Below are positions 531-47,254 of a DNA stretch of 64,000 nucleotides, in pieces. The notes under the pieces were generated by a model. The model had not been told where the DNA came from. It did not search any database and saw only the letters and a program-made list of their open reading frames with translations. The stretch is from a virus, in the IMG/VR virus record IMGVR_UViG_3300005663_000033, positions 49,444 through 113,443 of that record; one strand, given 5' to 3'. The stretch's first letter is position 1; each line of letters starts with the position of its first letter. A program made the translations under genes and the position numbers.

Positions 531-603
531 GCCCCTGTCGTCTAGTGGACTAGGATAGCTGTTTTTCAGGCAGCGGACCGGAGTTCGAATCTCCGCAGGG
601 GTA
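531..603 (+). tRNA. tRNA-Glu (anticodon TTC)
   Basis: Full cloverleaf: the 7-bp acceptor GCCCCTG pairs with CAGGGGT (one G-T pair). The 5-bp anticodon stem GCTGT/GCAGC holds the loop TTTTCAG, giving anticodon TTC. The T arm carries GTTCGAATC. CCA is not encoded. It would read GAA/GAG and supplement the host pool. Confidence 0.93.
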
Positions 604-2521: not shown

Positions 2522-2754
2522 TAGTCTATCAAATAATAGCTAAAGGCCATTCGGCAAACTTCGGAGGTAGACTCCAGGCAATCGTATCGAAAGAACTCTA
2601 CACATCTCCTCCCGGAGACGAAGAAAAGGAAAGATTCCTAAAGAAGTGCATCAAATGCGAGGGAGCAGCAGACCTAAAGAGTCTTGATCCGGATAACGTA
2701 ATAACAATTATCGTAGTGCCTTACGAACTAATAGATAACGGAGGATTACTGTGA
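2518..2754 (+). CDS. hypothetical protein, 78 aa
   Basis: ATGA overlap with the gene before it. Contains two Cys residues (KKCIKCEG) in a CxxC pair and a hydrophobic C-terminal strand. Function unknown. The four-gene coupling suggests a shared role with the hydrolase that follows. Confidence 0.65.
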   Translation: MIVYQIIAKGHSANFGGRLQAIVSKELYTSPPGDEEKERFLKKCIKCEGAADLKSLDPDNVITIIVVPYELIDNGGLL

Positions 2755-3317
2755 ACGCAGCCGAGAGATCAAGACATCTGGCGCACAGGAGGCTCGAAGA
2801 GTATGTGTCCGGTGGACATCGTCCAGAACGGACACTTGTAATTATTGATATGCAGACTGATTTTTACGATAAAGATGAGATAATTCCCAACATTTGTTCA
2901 CTAATCCAGTACGCCAGACAGAAAATATGGGCGATTATCGTTGTTGAATATGAAGGGCGCGGTAACACAGACGACGCGATTATTCAAGCTCTCGATGAAT
3001 ATCCACACAAGGAAACTGTATATAAACAGGGAATGGATGGAGGCAAAAAGGTATTGGATTGTATTAATAGTCACCCATCATGGCCGTTAGATCTTTTAGT
3101 TTGCGGTATTTATGGCCACGCATGTGTACCCGAAACCGTATCTGGGTTATTCAAATCGAGTGATTTAGTGGAAATTAGCGTGGTAACCGATGCGGTATTC
3201 AAATACTACTATCCACAGACTAAAATGGACGAACACGATCGACATCCAGAATGGATGATAACCATGAAGAATGTTCTAATTGACGAGGAGAGTGAAGTTG
3301 CGTCCCACACAGAATAG
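2751..3317 (+). CDS. isochorismatase-like cysteine hydrolase, 188 aa
   Basis: Resembles the isochorismatase/nicotinamidase superfamily, which hydrolyses amides or vinyl ethers through a Cys nucleophile. The expected triad is visible: Asp in VIIDMQTDF, Lys in the VYKQG segment and Cys in IYGHACVPETV. Length fits the family. The start is GTG, overlapping the previous stop. If it is a nicotinamidase it would feed NAD salvage, but the substrate cannot be read from sequence. Confidence 0.8.
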   Translation: MNAAERSRHLAHRRLEEYVSGGHRPERTLVIIDMQTDFYDKDEIIPNICSLIQYARQKIWAIIVVEYEGRGNTDDAIIQALDEYPHKETVYKQGMDGGKKVLDCINSHPSWPLDLLVCGIYGHACVPETVSGLFKSSDLVEISVVTDAVFKYYYPQTKMDEHDRHPEWMITMKNVLIDEESEVASHTE

Positions 3318-3334
3318 ATATTGGAGAAACTATA

Positions 3335-3691
3335 ATGGCCTTAATAAACCTATTAGGTATTCGCCCAACAGCGTGGTCTGTTTTATATGGGCTTCAAGCC
3401 TACAATGACTGGAAAGGATATGAATTTTCCGCCTGGTATAACGGGCGCGAATGCAGCATTTGTATGCACAAAACCCTGGGTAAAAATAAAACTCTGTGTA
3501 TAGTGTTTGGTGAACCAAGACGTACGGATGGTGTTTTTGTGGATTCGTGGATATGTGTGTTGAATAATTTTATGAATCCACCAACACTAAAAGACTACAC
3601 AGAACAAGCCTACGAAGACAGACATTGGTTTACAACAATAGACGGGGCCATAACCTATATTCTTGGTCTTGCGAAACAAAATAGTGAGTAA
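3335..3691 (+). CDS. hypothetical protein, 118 aa
   Basis: Preceded by TTGGAGAAA. Tryptophan- and Tyr-rich, soluble, no recognised motif. A short GTG frame overlaps its end and is not called. Confidence 0.65.
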   Translation: MALINLLGIRPTAWSVLYGLQAYNDWKGYEFSAWYNGRECSICMHKTLGKNKTLCIVFGEPRRTDGVFVDSWICVLNNFMNPPTLKDYTEQAYEDRHWFTTIDGAITYILGLAKQNSE

Positions 3692-3753
3692 ATATCCAAC
3701 CAAGGAGAATACTGATCCGAATAAAACGTGGAAAATCAAAAGGAGTTTGAACG

Positions 3754-3933
3754 ATGAACGACACGGACAGAAGCCAGTGGGTTGATAATGACGAAGGTCT
3801 TTATAATTTATGGAAGTCCTCCGGGATGAATAAGAGGGCGTGGATCAAAGCTAATAGGGCAATGATTGACGAAGTGACTAACAATGTGACAAGTTCTCGG
3901 AAACCGGCTCACTACCTAGAATATGGTGAATAA
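3754..3933 (+). CDS. small conserved-type phage protein, 59 aa
   Basis: An AAAAGGAG site stands well spaced before the ATG. The protein begins with the SQWVDNDEGLYNLW pattern and continues with a helical KANRAMIDEVTNNV segment. This layout occurs in short early proteins of many phages. Function unknown. Confidence 0.7.
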   Translation: MNDTDRSQWVDNDEGLYNLWKSSGMNKRAWIKANRAMIDEVTNNVTSSRKPAHYLEYGE

Positions 3934-3955
3934 GGTATAAAGAAGGAGATTGATA

Positions 3956-4165
3956 ATGTACCAAGGCCAACCAAGTCCTGAGCATAAGTTGTTCGCAGCG
4001 TACCACCATCACGAGTATGGCTCAACGCAGTGGGTATTTTGGTCAAATGTGTTCCCGACAGAATCACAAGTGGTCACGGCGCTCGGCATCATGTTTGAAC
4101 CAGAACTTGATGAATTTATCGATATTGAAGAAATAGATCAAATTCACACGGTAGAGCTTTCGTAA
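3956..4165 (+). CDS. hypothetical protein, 69 aa
   Basis: The ATG at 3956 is 7 bases after AAGGAG. The TTG two codons upstream is less likely. Acidic C-terminus. Not recognised. Confidence 0.6.
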   Translation: MYQGQPSPEHKLFAAYHHHEYGSTQWVFWSNVFPTESQVVTALGIMFEPELDEFIDIEEIDQIHTVELS

Positions 4166-4171
4166 CTTTTA

Positions 4172-4270
4172 ATGAAAAAGAAAGGGGCTAACGTGAATAG
4201 TGAAATCCAGTCTAAAGGAACAATCATTAGTGCAAAGATGCTGATTTCAGATGGGCAGATGAGGATATGA
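4172..4270 (+). CDS. possible 32-aa peptide
   Basis: Begins with MKKKGANV. An in-frame GTG seven codons on has a better AAAGGGG site and would give 25 residues. It fills the gap before the ubiquitin-like gene and might be a leader peptide. Weak support. Confidence 0.25.
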   Translation: MKKKGANVNSEIQSKGTIISAKMLISDGQMRI

Positions 4271-4334
4271 AAGAGTAAGCGGTGTGTAGCCGCTATAAGA
4301 AGGGCAATTAAGCCCCATTTTAAGGAGATCAAAG

Positions 4335-4565
4335 ATGATCAATGTTACGTTGGGAACGAATAGTGGAGCTGGACTCCCATGCCGCATTCCTATCGTCGAG
4401 GGCACGACGCTTGAAAAGTTCCTCGAAGTGTCGTTTGATGGTGATGTTAATGATTTTACCATCCGAGTCCGTTGTAATGGTACGAGCGTTGAAGCGCACA
4501 GCGACTACGTTCTCCAGGATGGAGATAGAATCTCATTAGCACCCATTAAAGTAGATGGGTCGTGA
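4335..4565 (+). CDS. ubiquitin-like beta-grasp protein, 76 aa
   Basis: Likely the modifier of the conjugation cassette that follows. The pattern fits ThiS/MoaD/ubiquitin-like folds: strand VTLGT, the loop VEGTTLEKFLE leading into the helix, a strand FTIRVRCNG, then the DYVLQDGDRISLAPIKV hairpin that ends such proteins. Size matches ubiquitin. The C-terminus is Asp-Gly-Ser rather than Gly-Gly, so the JAMM peptidase encoded downstream may have to trim it. The ATG follows TAAGGAG. A strong terminator separates it from the E2 gene, so it may be made in excess, as modifiers usually are. The fold is inferred by eye. Confidence 0.72.
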   Translation: MINVTLGTNSGAGLPCRIPIVEGTTLEKFLEVSFDGDVNDFTIRVRCNGTSVEAHSDYVLQDGDRISLAPIKVDGS

Positions 4566-4584
4566 TGCTGTAGCCGTACGATCT

Positions 4585-4615
4585 GGGGTGGGGGTGTGTC
4601 CCCCACCCCTTTTTA
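4585..4615 (+). terminator. strong rho-independent terminator
   Basis: A perfect 10-bp GC stem (GGGGTGGGGG/CCCCCACCCC), 5-base loop, then TTTTTA. It lies between the modifier gene and the E2-like gene and would lower expression of the enzymes relative to the modifier. Confidence 0.9.
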
Positions 4616-4631
4616 TTTCTGGGAATTCACT

Positions 4632-5594
4632 ATGAACGAAAAACTCATAAGGCGCGCCGCTAAAAAGTATAGAGATTGGATAGTCGAAAAGTCACAAGAA
4701 ATAAACTCCGTATCAGAAGTAACGATTCGATCATATCTAGAAACCCTATATCAAAAGTCTGAAGAGATGCAGAAGTGGTCCGGTCGTATCCTAAAAGGCA
4801 TAAGACAACGTGTCCAAAAAGACACATGGAAGCCAAACGCACTCCACATGGGTCTTCCAAATAAAAGCATATATAGGGGAATCGCCAATGGAATGGTTCC
4901 AGACCTGGGTAGGGACATCATATCCTATACAAAAAACGTAGTCTCCATGTTAAAGGATATGACCGCAGGGAACGACACTATCTTTCTCTCACCAAAAGAA
5001 GCGATTGAAGAAATCAGAATCATCAGTCAGACGTGGGATAAGGTTGAATTCAGACGAAATATGCTTTCTGTACGAATCAACAAAGTAACACTCTCTGACG
5101 ACAAAGAAGAGGTAGAACTCGGTGACTTCTGGATAAATTTACATCTTGACAACCTACCAGAAGGACTAACAATTCAATCCATAAATAAGGTTATGTCTTC
5201 TAGGAAATTTTTCCATCCCCATGTAAAACATGATAAATTATGTACTGGAGATGGCACAAATATGAACAACGGAAATCCAATGGGAGAAGCCCTTTCTGAA
5301 GGAAGGTTGGAGGATTATTTTAGGATAGTCGAAGCAATTCTGAGAACATACAACAAAGAGTCCCCCCATGAAGAACTAGTCGCATGGTATGATCCTGGCT
5401 CGGAAGATAATCACGAAAATGAGTTCCATTGTGTGGGGTGTGATGAGTGGTGTCATTGCGACGATGGTCTGTGGTGCGAAGGATGTAGTACTATTTATTG
5501 TAACGATTGCGCAGATGGTGTTATTTGCATTGATTGTGAAAATTGGCGTTGCGGAGAATGTAATACAACGTGTATTGGATGTAGCGAATCCTAA
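4632..5594 (+). CDS. E2-like (UBC fold) conjugating protein with N-terminal part of a Cys-rich zinc array
   Basis: Predicted thioester-carrying E2. Residues 1-130 are helical and charged. Residues about 140-260 carry the E2 signature: a strand/turn stretch ending in FFHPHV (H195-P-H197), then KLCTGDG with candidate catalytic Cys204, then a GEALSEGRLEDYF helix and a YNKESPHEEL segment like the YNP-SPY element of prokaryotic E2s. From Cys267 the chain becomes a dense series of CxxC knuckles, as in RING or zinc-ribbon domains. The frame stops at TAA after CIGCSES, yet the same Cys pattern continues without pause in the +1 frame, so the intact product is probably about 444 residues. The ATG at 4632 is preferred because a 4596 start lies inside the terminator. 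The Cys array could serve as an E3-like or substrate-binding module, which is inference. Confidence 0.75.
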   Translation: MNEKLIRRAAKKYRDWIVEKSQEINSVSEVTIRSYLETLYQKSEEMQKWSGRILKGIRQRVQKDTWKPNALHMGLPNKSIYRGIANGMVPDLGRDIISYTKNVVSMLKDMTAGNDTIFLSPKEAIEEIRIISQTWDKVEFRRNMLSVRINKVTLSDDKEEVELGDFWINLHLDNLPEGLTIQSINKVMSSRKFFHPHVKHDKLCTGDGTNMNNGNPMGEALSEGRLEDYFRIVEAILRTYNKESPHEELVAWYDPGSEDNHENEFHCVGCDEWCHCDDGLWCEGCSTIYCNDCADGVICIDCENWRCGECNTTCIGCSES

Positions 5595-5967
5595 TGTATG
5601 CCACGACACGTATTGCAAATCTTGCCTAGAGCACACTTGTGTGTCCTGCAATGAAAAATGTTGTGACTCATGCGTACAGTCCTGCGCTGGTTGCGGTGAT
5701 ACCATGTGCGATGACTGCAATACTTCGTGTGAGTGTTGCGGTGACGGTTGCTGCGGAGATTGTATTGAAGATCAAACTTGTAGCAAATGCGAAGGTTATA
5801 TCTGCAAGAGTTGTAAGATTACTTGCGGCGTATGCGATAAAATATTCTGCAAATCTTGTGGAGATAACGAATGCACAGATTGTGGAGTTCCCATGTGCGA
5901 TTCTTGTGTTGCTGAACACGAGTGTTTGCTTACAGGAATCAAGCCCTCGACTCAAAGCTCGCAGTAA
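5593..5967 (+). CDS. continuation of the Cys-rich zinc array in the +1 frame
   Basis: About 124 residues packed with CxxC pairs (CKSC, CVSC, CDSC, CAGC, CDDC, CGDC, CSKC, CTDC). The spacing is the same as at the C-terminus of the E2-like gene just before it. There is no ATG, GTG or ribosome site at the junction, so it is unlikely to be a separate gene. A one-base forward shift at the TCC TAA T stop would join the two. The alternatives are a natural indel or an assembly error. Confidence 0.6.
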   Translation, partial: NVCHDTYCKSCLEHTCVSCNEKCCDSCVQSCAGCGDTMCDDCNTSCECCGDGCCGDCIEDQTCSKCEGYICKSCKITCGVCDKIFCKSCGDNECTDCGVPMCDSCVAEHECLLTGIKPSTQSSQ

Positions 5968-5981
5968 TAAGGAGAAGAAAA

Positions 5982-6908
5982 ATGGCGAAAACAGAAGAAT
6001 TTCTAAAACCTAAAGTAACGTTTGGTGATACATTACGAATATCTCCCCTAGCATTCGCAAAGATGATATTCTGGAGAGACTGCGGAGACACTGAAGTAGC
6101 GGCATACGCAACTACCCACACAGACGACCCCTTGTTTATTACAGACTTTCGATTAATCAAACAAGAATGCACAAACATAACGTTTGATATCGACAAAAAC
6201 GATTTAGCTGAAGATGTAGAACACACACTAGATGATGGGCTATGCCCGTGGATGACACACAATATATTGTGTCACACTCATCCCGGATGTTCACCCTTAC
6301 CGAGCCACAACGACGAAGAAAACTTCAAGAAAGCATTCTCTCATCCGAATTGGGCAATCATGCTAATCATAGCAGAAAATGGAGAAACTTACTGCCGCCT
6401 CAAAATTAATACGGCTCCAGGCGTAGAGAAGCTATTGAAAGTCAGTGTTGACTTTAGCCAGGAATTCGAGGCCTCAAACCACCAATCATGGGACACAGAA
6501 TACAAATCCAAAGTAACCGAGAAGAAATTCCGCATGACAGGAAAAGAGGGGGTGGCGGCGAATAATGCCTTACCCTTTCAGGGAACAGAGGGCTTCCCGT
6601 GTTGGGACTACGAAAAAGAAGATTGGGTCGAGTTTGATAGACAAGGCGAAGGCGGGAATGAAGAAGCTTATGACATAGCTAGTGATTGTTTTTGGGATAG
6701 AGACGGTAACGCTGTGTATTGGTGTGAAGATCACTATGGGTGGTATTTCTTCGATCCAGTAAATGATAAATGGTCTTTCGACGACGCGGACGACGATGAA
6801 AACAGTATCGTAGAGATCGAACGGCCAGACGAGAAATGGGCTGAGCAAGTAGTTGCGTGGGCTGAGAAATTTGCTGATGAGCAAAACATCTGCGTAGGAG
6901 AACAGTAG
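5982..6908 (+). CDS. JAMM/JAB-type metallopeptidase, 308 aa
   Basis: Predicted deubiquitinase-like zinc peptidase that would process the modifier or remove it from targets. The complete JAMM signature is present: Glu38 (GDTEVA), then H98-T-H100-P with Ser108 and Asp111, exactly H-x-H-x10-D. Residues 1-160 form the JAB domain. The C-terminal 100 residues are Trp/Asp-rich (FWDRDG, GWYFFD) and not recognised. ATG at 5982 follows TAAGGAGAAG. It lies between the E2-like and E1-like genes, the grouping typical of prokaryotic ubiquitin-like operons. Confidence 0.85.
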   Translation: MAKTEEFLKPKVTFGDTLRISPLAFAKMIFWRDCGDTEVAAYATTHTDDPLFITDFRLIKQECTNITFDIDKNDLAEDVEHTLDDGLCPWMTHNILCHTHPGCSPLPSHNDEENFKKAFSHPNWAIMLIIAENGETYCRLKINTAPGVEKLLKVSVDFSQEFEASNHQSWDTEYKSKVTEKKFRMTGKEGVAANNALPFQGTEGFPCWDYEKEDWVEFDRQGEGGNEEAYDIASDCFWDRDGNAVYWCEDHYGWYFFDPVNDKWSFDDADDDENSIVEIERPDEKWAEQVVAWAEKFADEQNICVGEQ

Positions 6909-7217
6909 ATGGAGAAATTAAATGACTATATGGGGATAACCTATCCTAGCTTCTTATATTGGAGGATTTGGCGGCGTACCGTCTGGTATCTCTGGAAGAA
7001 GTTTCTGTGTCCAAAAAATGTTCACTTATTCGATGAGGTGTTGTCTAGCGAACACACCCTTGTTTGTGATGTCTGTGGACTGTGTGTTCATATCTCGATA
7101 ATAGAGACTGAAGAAAAAAGTTGGGACAGAGCAGGCAGTGGTTTGTATATTGAAACATCGGCAGTTGAAAAGAGTTACGACAACGACACCCATTGTATTC
7201 AGATATCACAGGAGTAA
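6909..7217 (+). CDS. hypothetical protein with a Cys knuckle, 102 aa
   Basis: Starts immediately after the JAMM gene stop, using AGGAG inside it. An N-terminal aromatic/basic region (WRIWRRTVWYLWKKF) is followed by VCDVCGLCV, half a zinc ribbon. Sits between the peptidase and the E1-like gene, so it may be an accessory of the conjugation cassette. Function unknown. Confidence 0.65.
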   Translation: MEKLNDYMGITYPSFLYWRIWRRTVWYLWKKFLCPKNVHLFDEVLSSEHTLVCDVCGLCVHISIIETEEKSWDRAGSGLYIETSAVEKSYDNDTHCIQISQE

Positions 7218-7222
7218 AAATC

Positions 7223-7882
7223 ATGCAGAGTCTAATAGAAAATCGTGACATTCGCCAACGGGAACTGATACCTCCAGAAAAATTGGCAGAGATCAGGGTC
7301 ACAATCGTTGGCGTTGGAAGCATAGGAAGGCAGGTAGCACTCCAATTAGCAGCTATTGGAGTATCAAGGCTCCATTTGGTAGACTTTGACACAGTCTGTC
7401 CAGAAAATCTGGCGGCGCAAGGTTTTTATGAAAGCGATCTCGGACGACCCAAGGTGGACGCCGTCGCGGATATCTGTAGGGCAATCAATTCGGAGATTGT
7501 GACAACCACTGCAAACAGAAAATTCAGGGGATTTGAGTTTACCGGGGGTGTGTTTTTCTGTTGTGCTGACGGAATCGACACCAAAAGGAAGATGTTCGAC
7601 TCTGTCAATAAGCGGGCAGACCTGTTCCTAGATGCTCGTATGAGTGCAGAGTATATAAGGGTGTTCTCTGTCTACGATGATGCGTCCAGGGAATATTATC
7701 CCACAACCTGTTTCCCAGCAGCCGAAGCATTCCAAGGAAGTTGCACGGCGAAAACAACCATATATTGTGCTAACGTCGCAGCGGGTATGCTAGTGGCGCA
7801 ATTCGCTAAGTGGTTGCGAGGATGTGAACTTGACAAAGATGTCGATCTCAATCTGTTAATGAATGAGATGGGGGCAAAATAA
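7223..7882 (+). CDS. E1/ThiF-like adenylyltransferase, 219 aa
   Basis: Predicted to adenylate the C-terminus of the beta-grasp modifier. A Rossmann fold begins at VTIVGVGSIG (G30-x-G32-x-x-G35), then LHLVDFDTV (Asp54, Asp56), ENL (Asn62), GRPK (Lys77) and CCADG (Asp116), the usual ThiF/MoeB/E1 order. The usual Arg after the Asn (NxxRQ) is Ala here (NLAAQ), so ATP handling may differ. Cys163 (PTTCFP) resembles the E1 catalytic Cys position, with Cys174 and Cys182 as alternatives. No CxxC zinc pair. Short and single-domain, so closer to ThiF-type than to eukaryotic E1. The ATG at 7223 follows AGGAG. Confidence 0.85.
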   Translation: MQSLIENRDIRQRELIPPEKLAEIRVTIVGVGSIGRQVALQLAAIGVSRLHLVDFDTVCPENLAAQGFYESDLGRPKVDAVADICRAINSEIVTTTANRKFRGFEFTGGVFFCCADGIDTKRKMFDSVNKRADLFLDARMSAEYIRVFSVYDDASREYYPTTCFPAAEAFQGSCTAKTTIYCANVAAGMLVAQFAKWLRGCELDKDVDLNLLMNEMGAK

Positions 7883-8920: not shown

Positions 8921-9716
8921 CTATTGGTATGACAAATGGATGGCTAGTACTCAATCCAATGCTTGTGTCGTCAGGGTAACTAATCAATGCAATCAAAAGT
9001 GCAGACACTGCTGTTTTAGGTCTGGCCCCGAACACGTTGGTCAAATGTCTGTAAAAATGTGCGAAAAAATCAACGCCTGGGTTCCGGTTAGGGTGGCCCT
9101 CAACATCATGGGTGGTGAATTCAGTGTCTTGGACAATTATCCGGAAATGCTTGCGGCATTGTCTCGCGACAAAAACATAGTTCATCTAGTCACAAACGGA
9201 TTTTGGACAAACGACAAAGAAGGTATTTACAAATTCTTTTCAGCCATAAGGGGTATAAAAAGAACGTCTGAATGTGTCAGTGTAACCGTATCCAATGATC
9301 ACTGGCACAAAAAGTCGACAGATGATCTGATAAAAATATTGAAAAATAACGGATTGGATGTGACAATAGAAACCGCTAGAAACTTAGGACCCAAGGGGGA
9401 CAGAATTTCACCAATTGGTCGCGCATGGGACAATAAACTCGTTCCTTGTAATAGTATCCATTGTTCTTGTGAAGTAATGTCCAGTATGATCATCACAGAA
9501 GATGGAATGGTGAATAGATGTCCATATGGGTATTTCCCGTGGAAACACTTCAGCGAAACCACTTGGAATGAAGCCCAAGAATATATCTGGGGATGGCGTT
9601 CAGAGAAACTCTCAGAAGGAATGAACTGTCATTTATGCATGGAAGTAGATAATGCAAATCGTTGTAGATTTGTTAGCAACAAAACATCTCTAGCGGGAGA
9701 ACTAAGTAATGTCTAG
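8907..9716 (+). CDS. radical SAM protein, 269 aa
   Basis: CNQKCRHCC at residues 28-36 is the CxxxCxxC motif that binds the 4Fe-4S cluster for S-adenosylmethionine cleavage. Upstream VVRVTNQ and downstream NIMGGEF (GGE) fit the TIM-barrel core. C-terminal Cys groups (PCNSIHCSC, CPYG, CHLC, CRF) look like a SPASM/twitch auxiliary cluster, typical of enzymes that modify peptides or proteins. The ATG at 8907 follows CAGGAG inside the preceding gene. Being coupled to the ubiquitin-like cassette raises the idea that it modifies a cassette protein, which is inference. Queuosine or nitrogenase-type roles are not supported. Confidence 0.85.
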   Translation: MAHPDYWYDKWMASTQSNACVVRVTNQCNQKCRHCCFRSGPEHVGQMSVKMCEKINAWVPVRVALNIMGGEFSVLDNYPEMLAALSRDKNIVHLVTNGFWTNDKEGIYKFFSAIRGIKRTSECVSVTVSNDHWHKKSTDDLIKILKNNGLDVTIETARNLGPKGDRISPIGRAWDNKLVPCNSIHCSCEVMSSMIITEDGMVNRCPYGYFPWKHFSETTWNEAQEYIWGWRSEKLSEGMNCHLCMEVDNANRCRFVSNKTSLAGELSNV

Positions 9717-10987: not shown

Positions 10988-11278
10988 ATGAGAGTTAGAG
11001 TTGGTGATTTAGCGATTGCTAAATTTGATCCAGGCGATGGTGATATCAAGGCTGGTCGGAAATGGGATGAAATGGTATGTCTCGTGACAGGAACAAATAG
11101 TCATGGACCCAGTAAGTATCGTTATTATGAGTTTATTTACTGGGACGGTTGTGGATCAAGTTTCAGTATTACTAAAAATGGTCTTCCTACTTCTCGTCTT
11201 GTTCGTGTTCGACCAAAAAAGAAATGGGATGGTGCATTGTCCAGTCTGAAGATAAATGATGTTGAAACAGTCGCCTAA
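10988..11278 (+). CDS. hypothetical protein, 96 aa, first gene of promoter copy 1
   Basis: The ATG at 10988 follows AAGGGAGAAGG. The longer frame to 10889 would start inside the promoter. Beta-rich and basic at the C-terminus (RPKKKW), possibly SH3-like. The strong promoter suggests abundant early expression. Function unknown. Confidence 0.7.
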   Translation: MRVRVGDLAIAKFDPGDGDIKAGRKWDEMVCLVTGTNSHGPSKYRYYEFIYWDGCGSSFSITKNGLPTSRLVRVRPKKKWDGALSSLKINDVETVA

Positions 11279-11342
11279 ATTTCCATGTAGTACAGATCAG
11301 TTATGTACGACTGATCAAAATATTAATTTACGAAAAGGAGTG

Positions 11343-11666
11343 ATGAAAATGCAACAGACAGAACAGACAGAGCAGGTTGAACAGAGTGAGGGCGAAGTCC
11401 GGAACGACCCGGCATTTGAGGTAGTCGAAATTAATCTCGCGACTGGAGAAACAACGATCATAATCAAAAAGGGGATCGTTGGCGCAATGGCCAACCAGTT
11501 GAAAAACACCAGCAATCGTAGAAAGGGCTCAAGTATTCTCCGTAAGCTCGGTTACGTGTTATCTGATTGTGGCGATATCCAGTATGGTGGAGAAGTCAAT
11601 AAGACGGATATTGATCCTGATCTTGTAACTAACGAGGATGAAGTGTCAAACCCTGCTTTGGAGTAG
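11343..11666 (+). CDS. hypothetical protein, 107 aa
   Basis: AAAAGGAG stands just before this ATG; upstream in-frame ATGs lack a site. An N-terminal Gln/Glu/Thr repeat (QTEQTEQVEQ) is followed by a compact VVEINLATGETTIIIKKG segment. Last gene before a strong terminator. Function unknown. Confidence 0.65.
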   Translation: MKMQQTEQTEQVEQSEGEVRNDPAFEVVEINLATGETTIIIKKGIVGAMANQLKNTSNRRKGSSILRKLGYVLSDCGDIQYGGEVNKTDIDPDLVTNEDEVSNPALE

Positions 11667-14802: not shown

Positions 14803-16362
14803 ATGAAGGACTTCGCCACGGATTTTGCCGATTATTGTTGTTCAGGTCACGCCCTATTACATGTAGAAACCTTCGAAAAAGATCGGGTAATAAGCGAGAT
14901 TGCGAAGGTGGCTGACGCTATGAATCGTAAGGTCTATATTTGGTCTATCGCTCGTGGATGGATAGACAAGAATGGTGGTTCTGTATGTGGTGTCAAACCC
15001 TCTGCTCAGATCGAAGAACACTTGCAGGCAATCGTTGAATTCCCGAATAGCGTTATCTGCATACTGCGCGACTTTGGCATATATATGCAACACGAAACCT
15101 ATTCCTATGATGATGTTGTTGTTGGATGGTTGGATGAGCTTCGCAAAATCGTAGGATCAGTCAACCAAAATATCGTTTTCGTTGGTCCAGATTTTAAGGT
15201 CCCCAAACCATTGCTGCATGATATTACGAAGATTGATTTTGATCTACCAGATAATGATCAAATCAGTGAACGAATCGATTTTGTTTGTAGTGATGTGGTC
15301 AAAGCCAATGGGGAAAAGTTCGAACCAAATAAAGATATAATTCCACATATCATTGATTCTTGTCGTGGTATGACTTCACAACAGACGGTCGATCGTGTTG
15401 CTCTAGCCCTTCGAAAACACAAGGACTTGAATGAGGATGCCGTGCGCACCATCGTCAGAGAAAAGGCCAGCATTATTCGTGCATCTGGACTCCTCACATA
15501 CATAGAACCGCCAAAAGGAGGACTAGCTAATGTCGGTGGATATGACGCACTAAAACAACACGTCCTCCTAGATCAACCATGTTTTACTCAAGAGGCGAGG
15601 AAGTTTGGAATAGAATTCCCCAGAGGACTTATGCTTGTTGGAATACCGGGCTGTGGAAAAACGCTGCTGTCTCTAGCCATCGCATCGGAACTTGGTTTGC
15701 CGCTCATCTCCATGGACGTTGGCAATCTAATGGATAAATATGTTGGTGAGTCCGAGGGCAATATGAGGGAAGCAATTAAGATGTTAGAAAGTATCGCCCC
15801 GTGTGTTTTACAGTTGGACGAAATAGAGAAAGGTTTTGGTGGCACGTCTGACATGGATGGTGGTTCGTCTCGTCGAGTATTCGGCACCTTCATCAAGTGG
15901 CTAAACGACAGAGAATCCCCCGTATACGTTGTTGCCACAGCCAACCAAGTCCAATCTCTCCCACCTGAGTTTTGTCGTAAGGGTCGTTTCGATGAGATAT
16001 ACGGACTCGATCTACCAAACTTCGAAGAACGTAAAGAAATCTTCTGTATTCATCTCTCGAAGAGGGAAAGAAAACCAAGTGATTTTGAAGTTGAAAAGTT
16101 ATCTGAAATCAGCCAAGGGTATACAGGAAGTGACGTTGAACAAACTATCAAACTTGGTCTAAAGATGGCTTTCTCAGAAAACAGCGAGCTTACAACAACC
16201 CATCTCATGAAAGCTATTTCTAATATAGTTCCACTTTCCAAAACAGAAGAGAGCCGAATTAAGGAAATCAGACAGTGGTGTAAGATGCATGCGCGGGCTG
16301 CAAATCCAAGTAAGAAAAATAGTCCACGTGGGGACAACGCCAGGACAGTCTCACTAAACTAA
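14803..16362 (+). CDS. Ycf46-like AAA+ ATPase, 519 aa
   Basis: ATP-driven remodelling enzyme. Residues 1-250 match the N-terminal region of Ycf46-type proteins (ALLHVETFEKDRVI, then VYIWSIARGW). The AAA+ core has Walker A GIPGCGKT (280-287), Walker B LQLDEIEKG (Asp339, Glu340), sensor-1 VVATANQ and the arginine-finger stretch CRKGRFDE. The pore-loop segment MDKYVGESEGNM fits the FtsH/Cdc48-like clade. Such ATPases unfold or reshape protein partners. The neighbours (DUF3150-, DUF1257- and DUF2997-like) probably form a shared complex. No protease domain is fused. Confidence 0.85.
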   Translation: MKDFATDFADYCCSGHALLHVETFEKDRVISEIAKVADAMNRKVYIWSIARGWIDKNGGSVCGVKPSAQIEEHLQAIVEFPNSVICILRDFGIYMQHETYSYDDVVVGWLDELRKIVGSVNQNIVFVGPDFKVPKPLLHDITKIDFDLPDNDQISERIDFVCSDVVKANGEKFEPNKDIIPHIIDSCRGMTSQQTVDRVALALRKHKDLNEDAVRTIVREKASIIRASGLLTYIEPPKGGLANVGGYDALKQHVLLDQPCFTQEARKFGIEFPRGLMLVGIPGCGKTLLSLAIASELGLPLISMDVGNLMDKYVGESEGNMREAIKMLESIAPCVLQLDEIEKGFGGTSDMDGGSSRRVFGTFIKWLNDRESPVYVVATANQVQSLPPEFCRKGRFDEIYGLDLPNFEERKEIFCIHLSKRERKPSDFEVEKLSEISQGYTGSDVEQTIKLGLKMAFSENSELTTTHLMKAISNIVPLSKTEESRIKEIRQWCKMHARAANPSKKNSPRGDNARTVSLN

Positions 16363-27403: not shown

Positions 27404-28054
27404 ATGCCGAAATTGATTGATCTTACTGGGAAAAGATTTGGTAGGCTTGTTGTTATCTGTCGCGACAAGAAAAATCGATTTGGAACACTCTGTTGGTTGT
27501 GTTTGTGTGACTGTGGTAAAGAAAAAATTATTCTTTGTGGCAGTCTTAAAAGTGGCAAGACGAAAAGTTGTGGATGTTTACGAAAAGAAATTATTTCAAA
27601 AATAATGACAAAACATGGCCATACGAAGAATAGGAAACAATCTCAAGTCTACAGGTCGTGGTATCACATAATACAGCGATGTACTAATTCTAACACAAAA
27701 GACTACCGTTGGTATGGTAGTCGAGGAATAACTGTTTGCGAACGATGGTTAAAATTCGAAAATTTTCTTGAGGATATGGGAGAGGCACCAATTGGATATC
27801 AAATTGATAGATTGGATAATAATAAAGGGTATTATTTAGAAAATTGTCGGTGGGTTACCCCAAAACAAAATGGTCGCAATAAACGAAACAATCATCTGAT
27901 TACACATAATGGCGAAATACAATGTATATCTGCTTGGGCAGAAGAAACCGGAATAAGTAAAAATACTATATTGTGGAGAATAACTCACGGTTGGTCACCG
28001 GAGAAAACTTTAACTACACCAGGTAAAATGGAGAAAACGAGTGACTGTAACTGA
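27404..28054 (+). CDS. HNH-type homing endonuclease, copy A, 216 aa
   Basis: Free-standing DNA endonuclease. The N-terminal KRFGRLVVICR strand and zinc knuckle (CDCG, SCGCL) are followed by WYGSRGITVCERW, MGEAPIGYQIDRLDN and ENCRWVTPKQN, the core of this HNH family. The C-terminus is an HTH-like SAWAEETGISKNTI with a WSPEKTLTTP end. Two paralogues lie at 39667 and 46628. Its 3' end overlaps the start of the BrxL-like gene, as if inserted at a gene junction. Confidence 0.85.
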   Translation: MPKLIDLTGKRFGRLVVICRDKKNRFGTLCWLCLCDCGKEKIILCGSLKSGKTKSCGCLRKEIISKIMTKHGHTKNRKQSQVYRSWYHIIQRCTNSNTKDYRWYGSRGITVCERWLKFENFLEDMGEAPIGYQIDRLDNNKGYYLENCRWVTPKQNGRNKRNNHLITHNGEIQCISAWAEETGISKNTILWRITHGWSPEKTLTTPGKMEKTSDCN

Positions 28055-32405: not shown

Positions 32406-33048
32406 TCGGAAGAAACGCAAAAATCACTGTGAACACGATGACGATTGTGAAGTTGTGACAGGACCTAATGCTCCACTTCAATTCGACGAAATAGTAGAAG
32501 ATTTTCTTACTAAAACACGTCGTCTGTTATTGGTGGGAGAAATAGATGAAATAGCATCAGCACATATCTGTAGTTATTTACAAGTTTTTTCTCTTAAAAA
32601 AGACCCTGTCTATATGTACATAAATAGTCCTGGGGGATGTTTAGCTTCTGGATATGCTATTGTCGATCAAATGTTGGCCTGTGATTGTCCTATTTACACA
32701 ATTATTCGTGGACAAGCACATTCTATGGGCGCTATAATAGCTGCGTTTGGCCAAAGTGGACATAGGTATTCAACGCCAAATTCATCTATCATGTTGCATT
32801 CAATTGTTGTTCAGAATGCATCCGGTCATATAGAAAAACATGCCGTAATGCTGGATTATATTCGAAAAAATTATTCCGAAAAGATTGTAGACCTTGCTAG
32901 AAGAATGAAATTGACCACGAAACAATTAGCCGATACAATGAATGATACTATATGGATGTCACCTAAACAAGCAGTGAAAATAGGTTTAATAGATGGGATT
33001 TGGACTCCACGTATGGAACGATCAATTAATAAGGGATTCAGCCAATGA
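32395..33048 (+). CDS. clpP: ClpP-like serine protease, 217 aa
   Basis: Barrel-forming protease subunit. YINSPGG, then QAHSMGAI with Ser110, MLHSIVV with His135, and an Asp in the ADTMND segment complete the triad. The N-terminus has an extra Lys/His/Asp-rich stretch of about 25 residues compared with bacterial ClpP. No ClpX/ClpA partner is encoded here, so it would use host unfoldases or the phage AAA+ proteins. The ATG at 32395 lies after GGAGAAG within the recombinase gene. Confidence 0.9.
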   Translation: MKSSRKKRKNHCEHDDDCEVVTGPNAPLQFDEIVEDFLTKTRRLLLVGEIDEIASAHICSYLQVFSLKKDPVYMYINSPGGCLASGYAIVDQMLACDCPIYTIIRGQAHSMGAIIAAFGQSGHRYSTPNSSIMLHSIVVQNASGHIEKHAVMLDYIRKNYSEKIVDLARRMKLTTKQLADTMNDTIWMSPKQAVKIGLIDGIWTPRMERSINKGFSQ

Positions 33049-39666: not shown

Positions 39667-40302
39667 TTGGGTACATTTATTAATATTGCTGGACAACGGT
39701 TTGGTAGATTAACTGTTTCATGTATAGCTGACCGAGATAAATGGAAAAATATCAGATGGTCATGTATTTGTGATTGTGGTCATAAAACTATTGTTTTAGG
39801 AGGCGCTCTTCGGCAAGGAAGAATCAATAATTGCGGTTGTTCAAAAATACGACATGGACATAGCAAGCAAGGTAATATGACACAAATATATATCGCGTGG
39901 ATGGCTATGAAACAAAGATGTGTTAATCTAAACAACCCAGAATACAAAAACTATGGAGCAAGAAATATAACTATATGTTTTCGCTGGAAAGTATTTGAAA
40001 ATTTCCTTGCAGATATGGGGGAACCTCCGACAGAAAATCATTCTTTAGATAGAATAAACAATGATGGTAATTATTGTCCAGAAAACTGCCGTTGGGCAAC
40101 TAAAACAGAACAAGCAAGAAACATGAGAGTCAATCATCTGATAACCTATCGAGGCAAAACACAATGTCTGCCAATTTGGGCTGAACAATTTGGCATAAGT
40201 GAAAATGCTTTGCGGACCAGACTCCGTGTATTAGGTTGGTCCATAGAAAAAGCTTTGACGACACCAATAAAAAGATACAAGAAAAGGAAAATCAATGGCT
40301 AA
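39667..40302 (+). CDS. HNH-type homing endonuclease, copy B, 211 aa
   Basis: Same family as the genes at 27404 and 46628: GQRFGRLTVSC, CDCG, NCGC, YGARNITICFRW, DRINNDG, ENCRWAT and the terminal WSIEKALTTP. A TTG start one codon after the phosphoesterase stop uses GGAG. The 3' end overlaps the nuclease gene by 8 bases. In copy B the usual GGRGIT box reads GARNIT, so activity may be changed. Confidence 0.82.
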   Translation: MGTFINIAGQRFGRLTVSCIADRDKWKNIRWSCICDCGHKTIVLGGALRQGRINNCGCSKIRHGHSKQGNMTQIYIAWMAMKQRCVNLNNPEYKNYGARNITICFRWKVFENFLADMGEPPTENHSLDRINNDGNYCPENCRWATKTEQARNMRVNHLITYRGKTQCLPIWAEQFGISENALRTRLRVLGWSIEKALTTPIKRYKKRKING

Positions 40303-46112: not shown

Positions 46113-46644
46113 AATCAACTGGGATGATTATTTTATGGTACAAGCCCTTTGGGCTAAAGTACGTAGTCCAGATAGTAGTACGCAATGTGGCTGCGTTTTG
46201 GTAGATAAACGTGGTAGGCCGATTGGTCAGGGTTATAATGGATACCCGAGAAACATCGACGACAGTAAAATGCCTCAAACACGGCCAGAAAAATATCCTT
46301 CCATTTTACATTCGGAAGAAAACGCTATATCCAATTCTGTTGGAGACCTGGAAGGAGCTACTGTTTACGTTACAGGACCACCATGTATTCATTGTTGGGC
46401 TCATATTATTCAAAAGGGAATCAAACGAGTTGTGTATGGACCAATTACAACATCATCTAAGGGATTGTATTCTGATGCGCAATTAGATAATCCAAACCAG
46501 GTTGTCGCAGACATGCTGGAGAATCAAGACATAGAAGTGGTTAGATGGATACCCAATAATTATGAACTGATCAAAGAAGAACTCGAACTGATTCGACGAT
46601 TGGTAATGGGGGCATTGGGCGAAATAGATGTCGGTATTAATTAA
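46099..46644 (+). CDS. dCMP deaminase, 181 aa
   Basis: Zinc enzyme giving dUMP for thymidylate synthesis. LHSEENAI is the HAEE-type site (His, catalytic Glu) and GPPCIHC supplies two Cys. RSPDSSTQCGCVLVDKRGRPIGQGYNG is reduced here to the typical dCMP deaminase opening around QCGCVLV. AAAGGAG precedes the ATG at 46099. Feeds ThyX. Confidence 0.9.
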   Translation: MLRTRINWDDYFMVQALWAKVRSPDSSTQCGCVLVDKRGRPIGQGYNGYPRNIDDSKMPQTRPEKYPSILHSEENAISNSVGDLEGATVYVTGPPCIHCWAHIIQKGIKRVVYGPITTSSKGLYSDAQLDNPNQVVADMLENQDIEVVRWIPNNYELIKEELELIRRLVMGALGEIDVGIN

Positions 46645-47254
46645 TTTGATTGGTAAAAGATTTGGACGACTTGTTGTAATTAAACGTATTATTAACAACA
46701 ATGGGAAAAATGCCAAATGGTTATGTATTTGTGATTGTGGCAATGAGACATCTGTTTTGAGTAGTCATCTTATAAGGAATAATATTAAAAGTTGTGGGTG
46801 CCTACAAAGAGAAATGACATCTGTTAAAAATACTAAACATGGTCATCTTAAAAATGGAAGAGTATCTACAATTTATAGATCATGGACAAATATGAAAACA
46901 AGATGTGTAAATAGAAAATATAATGAATATGAGAGTTATGGCGGTAGAGGGATTACCGTCTGTAAACGATGGTTAAAGTTCAAAAATTTTAACTACGATA
47001 TGGGTAAGAGATGGAAACCTGGATTACAAATAGATAGAATCAATAATGATAAAGGATACTGCAAAGAAAATTGCCGTTGGGTTACTTCCAAAATAAATAA
47101 TAGGAATAAGCGCAAGAATCTTTATAAAACACACAGAGGGAAAACCAAGCTTGTAATAGAATGGGCAAAAGAACATGATATTCCTTATAAGACTTTATGG
47201 GCGAGATTGTATCGATATGGTTGGTCAACAGAAAAAGCACTAACTACTCCTTGA
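46628..47254 (+). CDS. HNH-type homing endonuclease, copy C, 208 aa
   Basis: KRFGRLVVIKR, CDCG, SCGCL, YGGRGITVCKRW, DRINNDKG, ENCRWVT and WSTEKALTTP match copies A and B. It keeps the canonical GGRGIT box. Starts within the last 17 bases of the deaminase gene. Notably AT-rich. Confidence 0.85.
   Translation: MSVLINLIGKRFGRLVVIKRIINNNGKNAKWLCICDCGNETSVLSSHLIRNNIKSCGCLQREMTSVKNTKHGHLKNGRVSTIYRSWTNMKTRCVNRKYNEYESYGGRGITVCKRWLKFKNFNYDMGKRWKPGLQIDRINNDKGYCKENCRWVTSKINNRNKRKNLYKTHRGKTKLVIEWAKEHDIPYKTLWARLYRYGWSTEKALTTP

What the first reader, a model, noticed from the sequence alone, without database searches (positions are those of the whole stretch)
4335..7882. Phage-type ubiquitin-like conjugation cassette: modifier, E2 with zinc array, JAMM peptidase, E1
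Within 3.6 kb lie a ThiS/ubiquitin-like 76-aa protein, a protein with an E2 signature (HPHV then KLCTGDG, Cys204), a JAMM protease with a perfect E...HxH-x10-D set, and a ThiF/E1-like enzyme. Comparative work on prokaryotic ubiquitin relatives, and Bil defence operons, establish that E1, E2, JAB and Ubl genes travel together. New here are the phage-like genomic setting, a long RING-like Cys array fused to the E2, and a radical SAM gene just downstream. A phage could use it to tag host defence proteins, polymerase or its own virion proteins. All seen by motif reading.
Basis: partly seen in the sequence, partly recalled or inferred. Interest (0 to 1): 0.93.

Follow-up and report, generated by a model that had tools for sequence, protein, structure and literature searches.

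The report
Phage-borne ubiquitin-like protein tagging cassette
A group of large bacterial viruses known only from environmental DNA carries all four parts of a ubiquitin-style protein-tagging machine (tag, activating enzyme, transfer enzyme, tag-trimming protease), a kind of machine reported so far mostly in cells and in bacterial anti-virus defences.

Summary
Observation confirmed, with corrections. The window lies in a 113 kb Caudoviricetes-type phage record. Ubl, E2, JAMM peptidase and ThiF/E1 lie in that order at 4335-7882. Starting from the E1 alone I found 13-14 related IMG/VR contigs (up to 180 kb). Wherever sequence reaches, all four genes recur in the same order, with catalytic residues invariant: E2 HP(H/N)+Cys204, JAMM E38/H98/H100/S108/D111, E1 Asp/Asn/Lys and Cys174, Ubl penultimate Gly75. 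The Ubl model is a beta-grasp fold. The E2 has UBC topology and aligns collinearly with eukaryotic E2s (P=0.001; shuffles >=0.098). A new clue is that every Ubl (13/13) carries 1-81 residues after a single conserved Gly, so the JAMM probably matures it. Corrections: the E1 catalytic Cys is C174, not C163. In this genome the E2's Cys array is broken by a +1 frameshift, although relatives are intact. The radical SAM gene is not a constant partner. Steigviridae crAss-like phages and Flavobacterium phage FpV4 carry a distant version (E1, JAB, E2-like, longer Ubl-like), so a tractable phage exists. Best reading: a phage-encoded Ubl conjugation/deconjugation pathway, target unknown. It is a new variant of a known kind.

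The parts
4335..4565 (+). Ubiquitin-like modifier (Ubl), 76 aa, ends ...P70-x-K72-V-D-G75-S76; Gly75 codon 4557-4559
   Evidence: AlphaFold2 beta-grasp, PDB fold hits archaeal Ub/MoaD/SUMO, 13-member alignment with invariant P70, K72, G75
4632..5594 (+). E2-like conjugating enzyme: N-terminal long helices (1-111), UBC domain (about 119-256) with HPH195-197 (5214-5222) and Cys204 (5241-5243), then the first part of a CxxC zinc-type array; stop TAA 5592-5594
   Evidence: model topology, profile alignment to eukaryotic E2s with controls, invariant residues in 13 phages
5589..5595 (+). Reading-frame break: TCC TAA T; the array continues in the +1 frame. Relative to closest relatives most simply a net loss of about 26 nt inside the array; +1 programmed frameshifting at UCC UAA U not excluded
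   Evidence: uninterrupted in 12 of 12 relatives; same in the near-identical contig 3300005253_000980
5593..5967 (+). Out-of-frame remainder of the CxxC array (19 CxxC in all when joined; alternating 4- and 3-residue spacers), ending CxxxHxCLL
   Evidence: blastp to the arrays of 10 relatives
5982..6908 (+). JAMM/JAB metallopeptidase, 308 aa: E38 (6093-6095), H98 (6273-6275), H100 (6279-6281), S108, D111 (6312-6314); conserved C-terminal extension
   Evidence: Pfam Prok-JAB 4.8e-5; all five residues invariant in 11 phages
6909..7217 (+). Small ORF (102 aa) between JAMM and E1, no family, no homologue near the cassette in relatives; not a core part
7223..7882 (+). E1/ThiF-type adenylating enzyme, 219 aa, one domain; catalytic Cys candidate C174 (7742-7744) in the motif CTAKTTIYCAN
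   Evidence: Pfam ThiF 6.9e-23; 63-71% identical in the closest phages, D/N/K/D and Cys invariant in 11
2751..3317 (+). Isochorismatase-family protein upstream, neighbour in several relatives; not a core part
   Evidence: PF00857 1.1e-11, synteny
8928..9716 (+). Radical SAM protein with extra C-terminal Cys; homologue near the cassette in 4 relatives; optional neighbour
   Evidence: PF04055 5.3e-9

Best explanation
The four genes encode a self-contained ubiquitin-like conjugation and deconjugation pathway of a large phage. Inferred steps: the JAMM peptidase trims the Ubl precursor after its single conserved Gly75; the E1 adenylates that Gly with ATP and takes it onto C174; it passes to Cys204 of the E2 (HP[H/N] motif); the E2, whose C-terminal CxxC array acts as a built-in zinc-binding substrate or E3-like module, puts the Ubl on target proteins during infection; the JAMM can also remove it. 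Shown here: folds, invariant catalytic residues, gene order, and the uniform presence of a tail after the Gly. Inferred: all chemistry, and the role of the array. Guess: the targets (host or phage replication/defence proteins favoured, because in crAss-like phages the distant version lies among primase, uracil-DNA glycosylase and exonuclease genes). In this particular genome the array is frameshifted, so the E2 is made with a short array unless ribosomes shift.
For: Ubl-E2-JAMM-E1 in the same order and strand in distant phage contigs (E1 down to about 40% identity) found from E1 alone. Invariant E2 HP+Cys+Gly in 13/13, with the canonical HPN in L036 and constant His-to-Cys spacing of 9. JAMM E/H/H/S/D 11/11; E1 R10, D53, N61, K76, D115, C-T-x-K 11/11 (positions as, +1 from the ATG). 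Ubl beta-grasp model and Ub/MoaD/SUMO fold hits. E2 model with UBC order alpha-4beta-(HPH, Cys)-alpha and P=0.0011 alignment to eukaryotic E2s placing HPH on HPN, Cys204 on the catalytic Cys and N-x-x-S-P on PNPDDP. 13/13 Ubls have K-x-x-G plus 1 to 81 more residues. E1 profile hits both ThiF/MoeB and UBA7/UBA5/UBA6.
Against: No biochemistry. The E2 is not recognised by Pfam or by sequence search of the PDB, and a fold search with the whole model, dominated by its long helices, gave no UBC hit. The E2 gene of this genome is frameshifted. No target known.
Confidence: 0.78

Rival explanations
1. A sulfur-carrier system: the Ubl becomes a thiocarboxylate (as ThiS, CysO or TtuB do) for tRNA or cofactor modification, with JAMM trimming the precursor and the Cys-rich protein acting as an acceptor or scaffold.
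For: E1 best named hits are ThiF/MoeB; JAMM genes do occur with sulfur-transfer operons (PMC1779556); a radical SAM gene is nearby in some relatives.
Against: A UBC-like protein with invariant HP[H/N] and Cys204 is always present; no rhodanese or sulfurtransferase gene seen in the cassette or its immediate neighbours; all ThiF/MoeB matches far below their curated cut-offs; the Ubl has one Gly, not GG.
Confidence: 0.12
2. The cassette is a phage-carried weapon or defence against competing phages, in the manner of Bil, rather than a tool against the host: it tags rival virion proteins.
For: Bil conjugates Ubl onto phage tails (cited in PMC12135933); JAMM, E1 and Ubl parts correspond.
Against: PADLOC gives only generic CBASS E1-E2/JAB matches; found in the shared backbone of many related phages, not in a variable defence island; component architectures differ from Bil.
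Confidence: 0.15
3. In this genome the system is decaying: the E2 frameshift marks a pseudogene.
For: Array split by a stop and a frame change; intact in 12/12 relatives; same in a near-identical contig.
Against: UBC domain, Cys204, Ubl, JAMM and E1 are intact; the out-of-frame part keeps its Cys pattern to the conserved CxxxHxCLL end, so the break is recent, an assembly error in a repetitive stretch, or a programmed +1 shift (UCC UAA U).
Confidence: 0.35

Closest known systems
Crassvirales (Steigviridae: cr111_1, cr128_1, cr106_1), Dulem virus 41 and Flavobacterium phage FpV4: unnamed gene run annotated hypothetical / hypothetical / metalloprotease domain / thiamine biosynthesis protein ThiF
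   Same: E1 homologous over its whole length (hhalign 1.5e-31) with C-[ST]-x-K; JAB adjacent (P 5e-4) with HSH...SGTD; an E2-size protein with HSH...C-x-G before it; in four of the five a longer protein before that with a K-[KQ]-[IV]-x-S-G joint followed by a further domain
   Different: E1 only 25-30% identical; E2-like match is a local motif only (P 0.02); no CxxC array; the Ubl-like protein is not alignable with the window's Ubl; no published mention as a ubiquitin-like system in the library searched
Bacterial Bil (BilA-D)
   Same: Ubl, E2, JAMM and E1 as separate neighbouring genes
   Different: Bil has a double-Ubl modifier, CEHH E2 motif and two-domain E1 (PMC11354881); here single Ubl, HP[H/N]+Cys E2 with CxxC array, one-domain E1
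Type 6d operon of Iyer et al. 2006 (PMC1779556)
   Same: Ub-like protein, JAB, E1-like and E2-like genes together
   Different: 6d E2 lacks the upstream His and has one after the Cys; also an alpha-helical fifth gene
Bub (BubCD) and CBASS Cap2/Cap3
   Same: E1, E2 and JAMM chemistry in prokaryotes
   Different: CBASS E1 and E2 fused and the modifier is the cGAS enzyme (PMC10097602); Bub described as putative immune operons (PMC13373217)
Eukaryotic UFM1/UBA5
   Same: One-domain E1 (UBA5 among the best PDB hits) and, from general knowledge, a single-Gly modifier trimmed of a short tail
   Different: UFM1 is trimmed by cysteine proteases; similarity of logic, not membership
Caldiarchaeum subterraneum ubiquitin/Rpn11
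   Same: Best fold match of the Ubl and weak best match of the JAMM profile (E 0.08)
   Different: Archaeal chromosomal system with separate E3

Membership tests
E2 / UBC fold conjugating enzymes | UBC topology with HPN-type motif and catalytic Cys about 8-10 residues downstream | tested here: met
   topology; collinear alignment, P 0.0011 vs shuffles; HP and Cys 13/13 with HPN in L036
E2 / UBC fold conjugating enzymes | Match to a curated E2 family or solved E2 by sequence or whole-model fold search (supporting evidence rather than a defining feature) | tested here: inconclusive
   no E2 family or structure hit; the fold search was dominated by the long helices, so the member claim rests on the topology and profile alignment
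Ubiquitin-like beta-grasp modifiers | Beta-grasp fold with C-terminal Gly available after processing | tested here: met
   fold; Gly75 invariant in 13/13, followed by 1-81 residues
JAMM/JAB peptidases | E...HxH-x7-S-x2-D metal and catalytic set | tested here: met
   11/11 invariant; Pfam 4.8e-5
E1-like (ThiF/MoeB/UBA superfamily) | ThiF fold with ATP-site Asp/Asn/Lys/Asp and a catalytic Cys | tested here: met
   Pfam ThiF 6.9e-23; residues invariant
ThiF-ThiS / MoeB-MoaD sulfur carriers | Curated ThiF/MoeB equivalog score and GG-ending carrier | tested here: not met
   best 72.9 bits vs cut-off 159; Ubl ends G-S
Bil | Tandem-Ubl BilA, CEHH E2, two-domain E1 | tested here: not met
   single Ubl, no Cys-Glu-His-His pattern, 219-aa one-domain E1 against PMC11354881
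CBASS Cap2/Cap3 | E1-E2 fusion plus cGAS-like enzyme as modifier | tested here: not met
   E1 and E2 are separate genes; no nucleotidyltransferase among the family matches of the cassette and its immediate neighbours
PRTRC cassette | PRTRC ThiF family score | tested here: not met
   21.5 bits vs cut-off 144.75 for the window E1
Bub | Bub operon architecture and E1-E2 relation | not tested
   only a weak shared E1 match to Citrobacter BubCD (1.6e-9); the defining papers are not held
Ubl conjugation system (functional sense) | E1 and E2 thioesters and Ubl-target isopeptide adducts | not testable with these tools
   needs protein work
RING-type E3 | Cross-brace C3HC4-like spacing | tested here: not met
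   array is CxxC modules with alternating 4- and 3-residue spacers and few His; Pfam RING hit in 1 of 10 members, E 0.03

The most novel reading that the evidence does not exclude
The phage carries a whole tag-unfold-degrade route: the Ubl marks proteins, the Cdc48/p97-like AAA ATPase (window 14803-16359, within the same syntenic block and present in all 9 large relatives) unfolds them, and the phage's own ClpP (window about 32506-33000) degrades them, i.e. a viral counterpart of the ubiquitin-Cdc48-proteasome pathway used for host takeover.
Probability: 0.1. Interest if true: 0.95.

Novelty: new variant of a known kind. Interest (0 to 1): 0.8.

Why it matters
Ubiquitin-like tagging in prokaryotes has so far been described largely as a weapon against phages (Bil, CBASS; Bub is still putative). 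A phage lineage that keeps its own complete cassette in its core genome would turn the picture round, and would show that viruses carried E1-E2-JAMM relays in the prokaryotic world. The link to crAss-like phages and Flavobacterium phage FpV4, some with cultured hosts, makes the question testable: knock out one phage gene and look for the tagged proteins.

Tried and rejected
Whole-model fold search of the E2: dominated by the long N-terminal helices, no UBC hit; not used as evidence either way. Sequence search of PDB with the UBC and Ubl profiles: nothing meaningful (actin-type chance hits for the Ubl). Bacterial genome contigs: only a weak 33% ThiF match (L021), so no bacterial home found for this E1 family at that sensitivity. 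Plasmid E1 hits: a YcaO/MoaD operon, CBASS and other ThiF genes, none with this arrangement. Considered tail-assembly TAPI/TAPK (the known phage Ubl/JAB pair): rejected, since E1 and E2 are present and no tail gene was seen beside the cassette. Considered a programmed +1 frameshift as a feature of the family: rejected for the family (12/12 relatives unbroken), left open for this genome; DNA pattern scans for other copies of the site found only the near-identical contig. HHalign of the crAss Ubl-like protein against the window Ubl gave nothing.
Full report
What the window is. The window is bases 49444-113443 of a 113,443-base virus record. The record has portal and terminase homologues, a ClpP-type head protease next to them, DNA polymerase III alpha, DnaB helicase, an integrase, HNH endonucleases and inteins. 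It is a phage fragment; relatives with the same cassette are 160-180 kb contigs.

Checking the four genes. E1: Pfam ThiF 6.9e-23; JAMM: Prok-JAB 4.8e-5, slightly below the curated cut-off; Ubl: ThiS 0.02; E2: nothing. The weak ones were therefore tested further. The Ubl gave an AlphaFold2 model of beta-beta-alpha-beta-beta-beta order (pLDDT 83) whose best PDB matches are archaeal ubiquitin, MoaD, SUMO and ubiquitin. The E2 model has, after two long helices, helix 121-134, four strands (138-183), then the HPH and Cys204 loop, then helices, which is the UBC order. A profile of 13 phage E2 domains aligned with five eukaryotic E2s end to end (P=0.0011). It placed HPH on HPN, Cys204 on the catalytic Cys and N-x-x-S-P on PNPDDP; fifteen column shuffles gave P of 0.098 or worse and the reversed profile 0.5. 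A fold search with the whole E2 model failed, probably because the long helices dominate.

Relatives. Searches started from the E1 alone and returned 13-14 distinct IMG/VR contigs besides a near-identical one. Profiles of the other three proteins then found the JAMM and E2 next to the E1 wherever the contig reaches (13 of 13 for both), and the Ubl in all 12 contigs that reach that far, always Ubl-E2-JAMM-E1 on one strand, with E1 identity falling to about 40%. Homing-endonuclease-like genes sit inside the cassette in some. Catalytic residues are invariant: E2 H195, P196, C204, G206 in 13/13 with H197 replaced by the canonical N in L036; JAMM E38, H98, H100, S108, D111 in 11/11; E1 R10, D53, N61, K76, D115, C173-T-x-K in 11/11 counted from the second residue, so the active Cys is C174 from the ATG.

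The processing clue. All 13 Ubls share P-x-K-[VI]-x-G and none ends there. They carry S, E, A, P, AVC, ATL, ALN, a 10-residue tail, or, in L008, an 81-residue domain. In L013 a homologue of that domain is a separate ORF. A single invariant Gly with a variable tail, next to an invariant JAMM, predicts that the JAMM exposes the Gly. This is inference, but it is directly testable.

The Cys array. The E2s carry 4 to 21 CxxC motifs, mostly with alternating 4- and 3-residue spacers. This is not a RING spacing. In the window the array is interrupted after 5591 by TAA and continues in the +1 frame to 5967. All 12 relatives with a complete E2 are uninterrupted. Measured against the closest ones the window lacks about 26 nt there, so a deletion (real or from assembly) is the simplest cause. 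The near-identical contig 3300005253_000980 has the same break but may share its source. UCC UAA U could in principle allow +1 slippage.

Neighbours. Conserved neighbours in the close relatives include an isochorismatase-family protein upstream and, about 7 kb downstream, a Cdc48/p97-like AAA ATPase (PDB p97, 8e-55). Radical SAM homologues lie near the cassette in only four relatives. Each of the nine large contigs also has a ClpP, and six have two. AAA homologues also occur in Rhizobium and mycobacterial phages, and in the one inspected (RHph_I4) beside DUF1257/DUF2997 genes with no annotated cassette, so an unfoldase link is only a lead.

Known systems. Steigviridae crAss-like phages, Dulem virus 41 and Flavobacterium phage FpV4 have, in the same order, an E2-size protein with HSH...C-x-G, a JAB protein and a full-length homologous E1 (1.5e-31) annotated as ThiF, in four of five after a longer protein with a K-[KQ]-[IV]-x-S-G joint. 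I found no paper in the held library that describes a phage-encoded E1-E2-JAB-Ubl set; the library is incomplete, so this is not proof of novelty. The 2006 survey (PMC1779556) lists bacterial operon types 6a-6e and, in phages, only the tail-assembly Ubl/JAB pair. Bil, CBASS and type 6d differ in the defining details listed in the membership table; Bub was compared only by published description.

Verdict. This is a real, conserved, phage-borne Ubl conjugation-type cassette. Conjugation chemistry is likely but unproved, and the targets are unknown.

Noticed in passing
window 14803-16359: Cdc48/p97-like AAA ATPase (PDB p97 8e-55), 53-76% identical in all 8 other large cassette contigs, 7 kb from the E1; related AAA genes also in Rhizobium and mycobacterial phages without an annotated cassette in the one neighbourhood read.
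   Followed up: partly
window about 32506-33000 and G000:16981-17454: Two ClpP-family proteases; the first keeps the GQAxSMG serine motif and resembles true ClpP (4e-21), the second lies in the same end of the record as portal and terminase.
   Followed up: partly
L003:3575-6940 (-) (record 3575-6940): 1122-aa terminase-like ORF with an HNH/intein-type insertion; a 1074-aa neighbour resembles a nucleotide-sugar epimerase with a similar insertion.
   Followed up: no
L008:6870-7343 and L013:7329-7706: An 81-aa helical domain is fused to the Ubl in L008 but encoded by a separate ORF in L013.
   Followed up: partly
window 11256-11663: 136-aa protein of unknown family, 52-73% identical in 9 relatives, one of the best conserved neighbours of the cassette.
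   Followed up: no
L037-L041 (crAss-like phages, FpV4): Genes annotated as thiamine biosynthesis ThiF and metalloprotease are probably E1 and JAB of a Ubl system, not thiamine genes.
   Followed up: partly
window 531-603 and 1567-1639: tRNA-Glu and tRNA-Lys genes just upstream of the cassette region.
   Followed up: no
window 27404-28051, 39667-40299, 46628-47251: Family of related HNH-type homing endonuclease genes scattered through the genome, also inside the cassette of relatives (L032).
   Followed up: no
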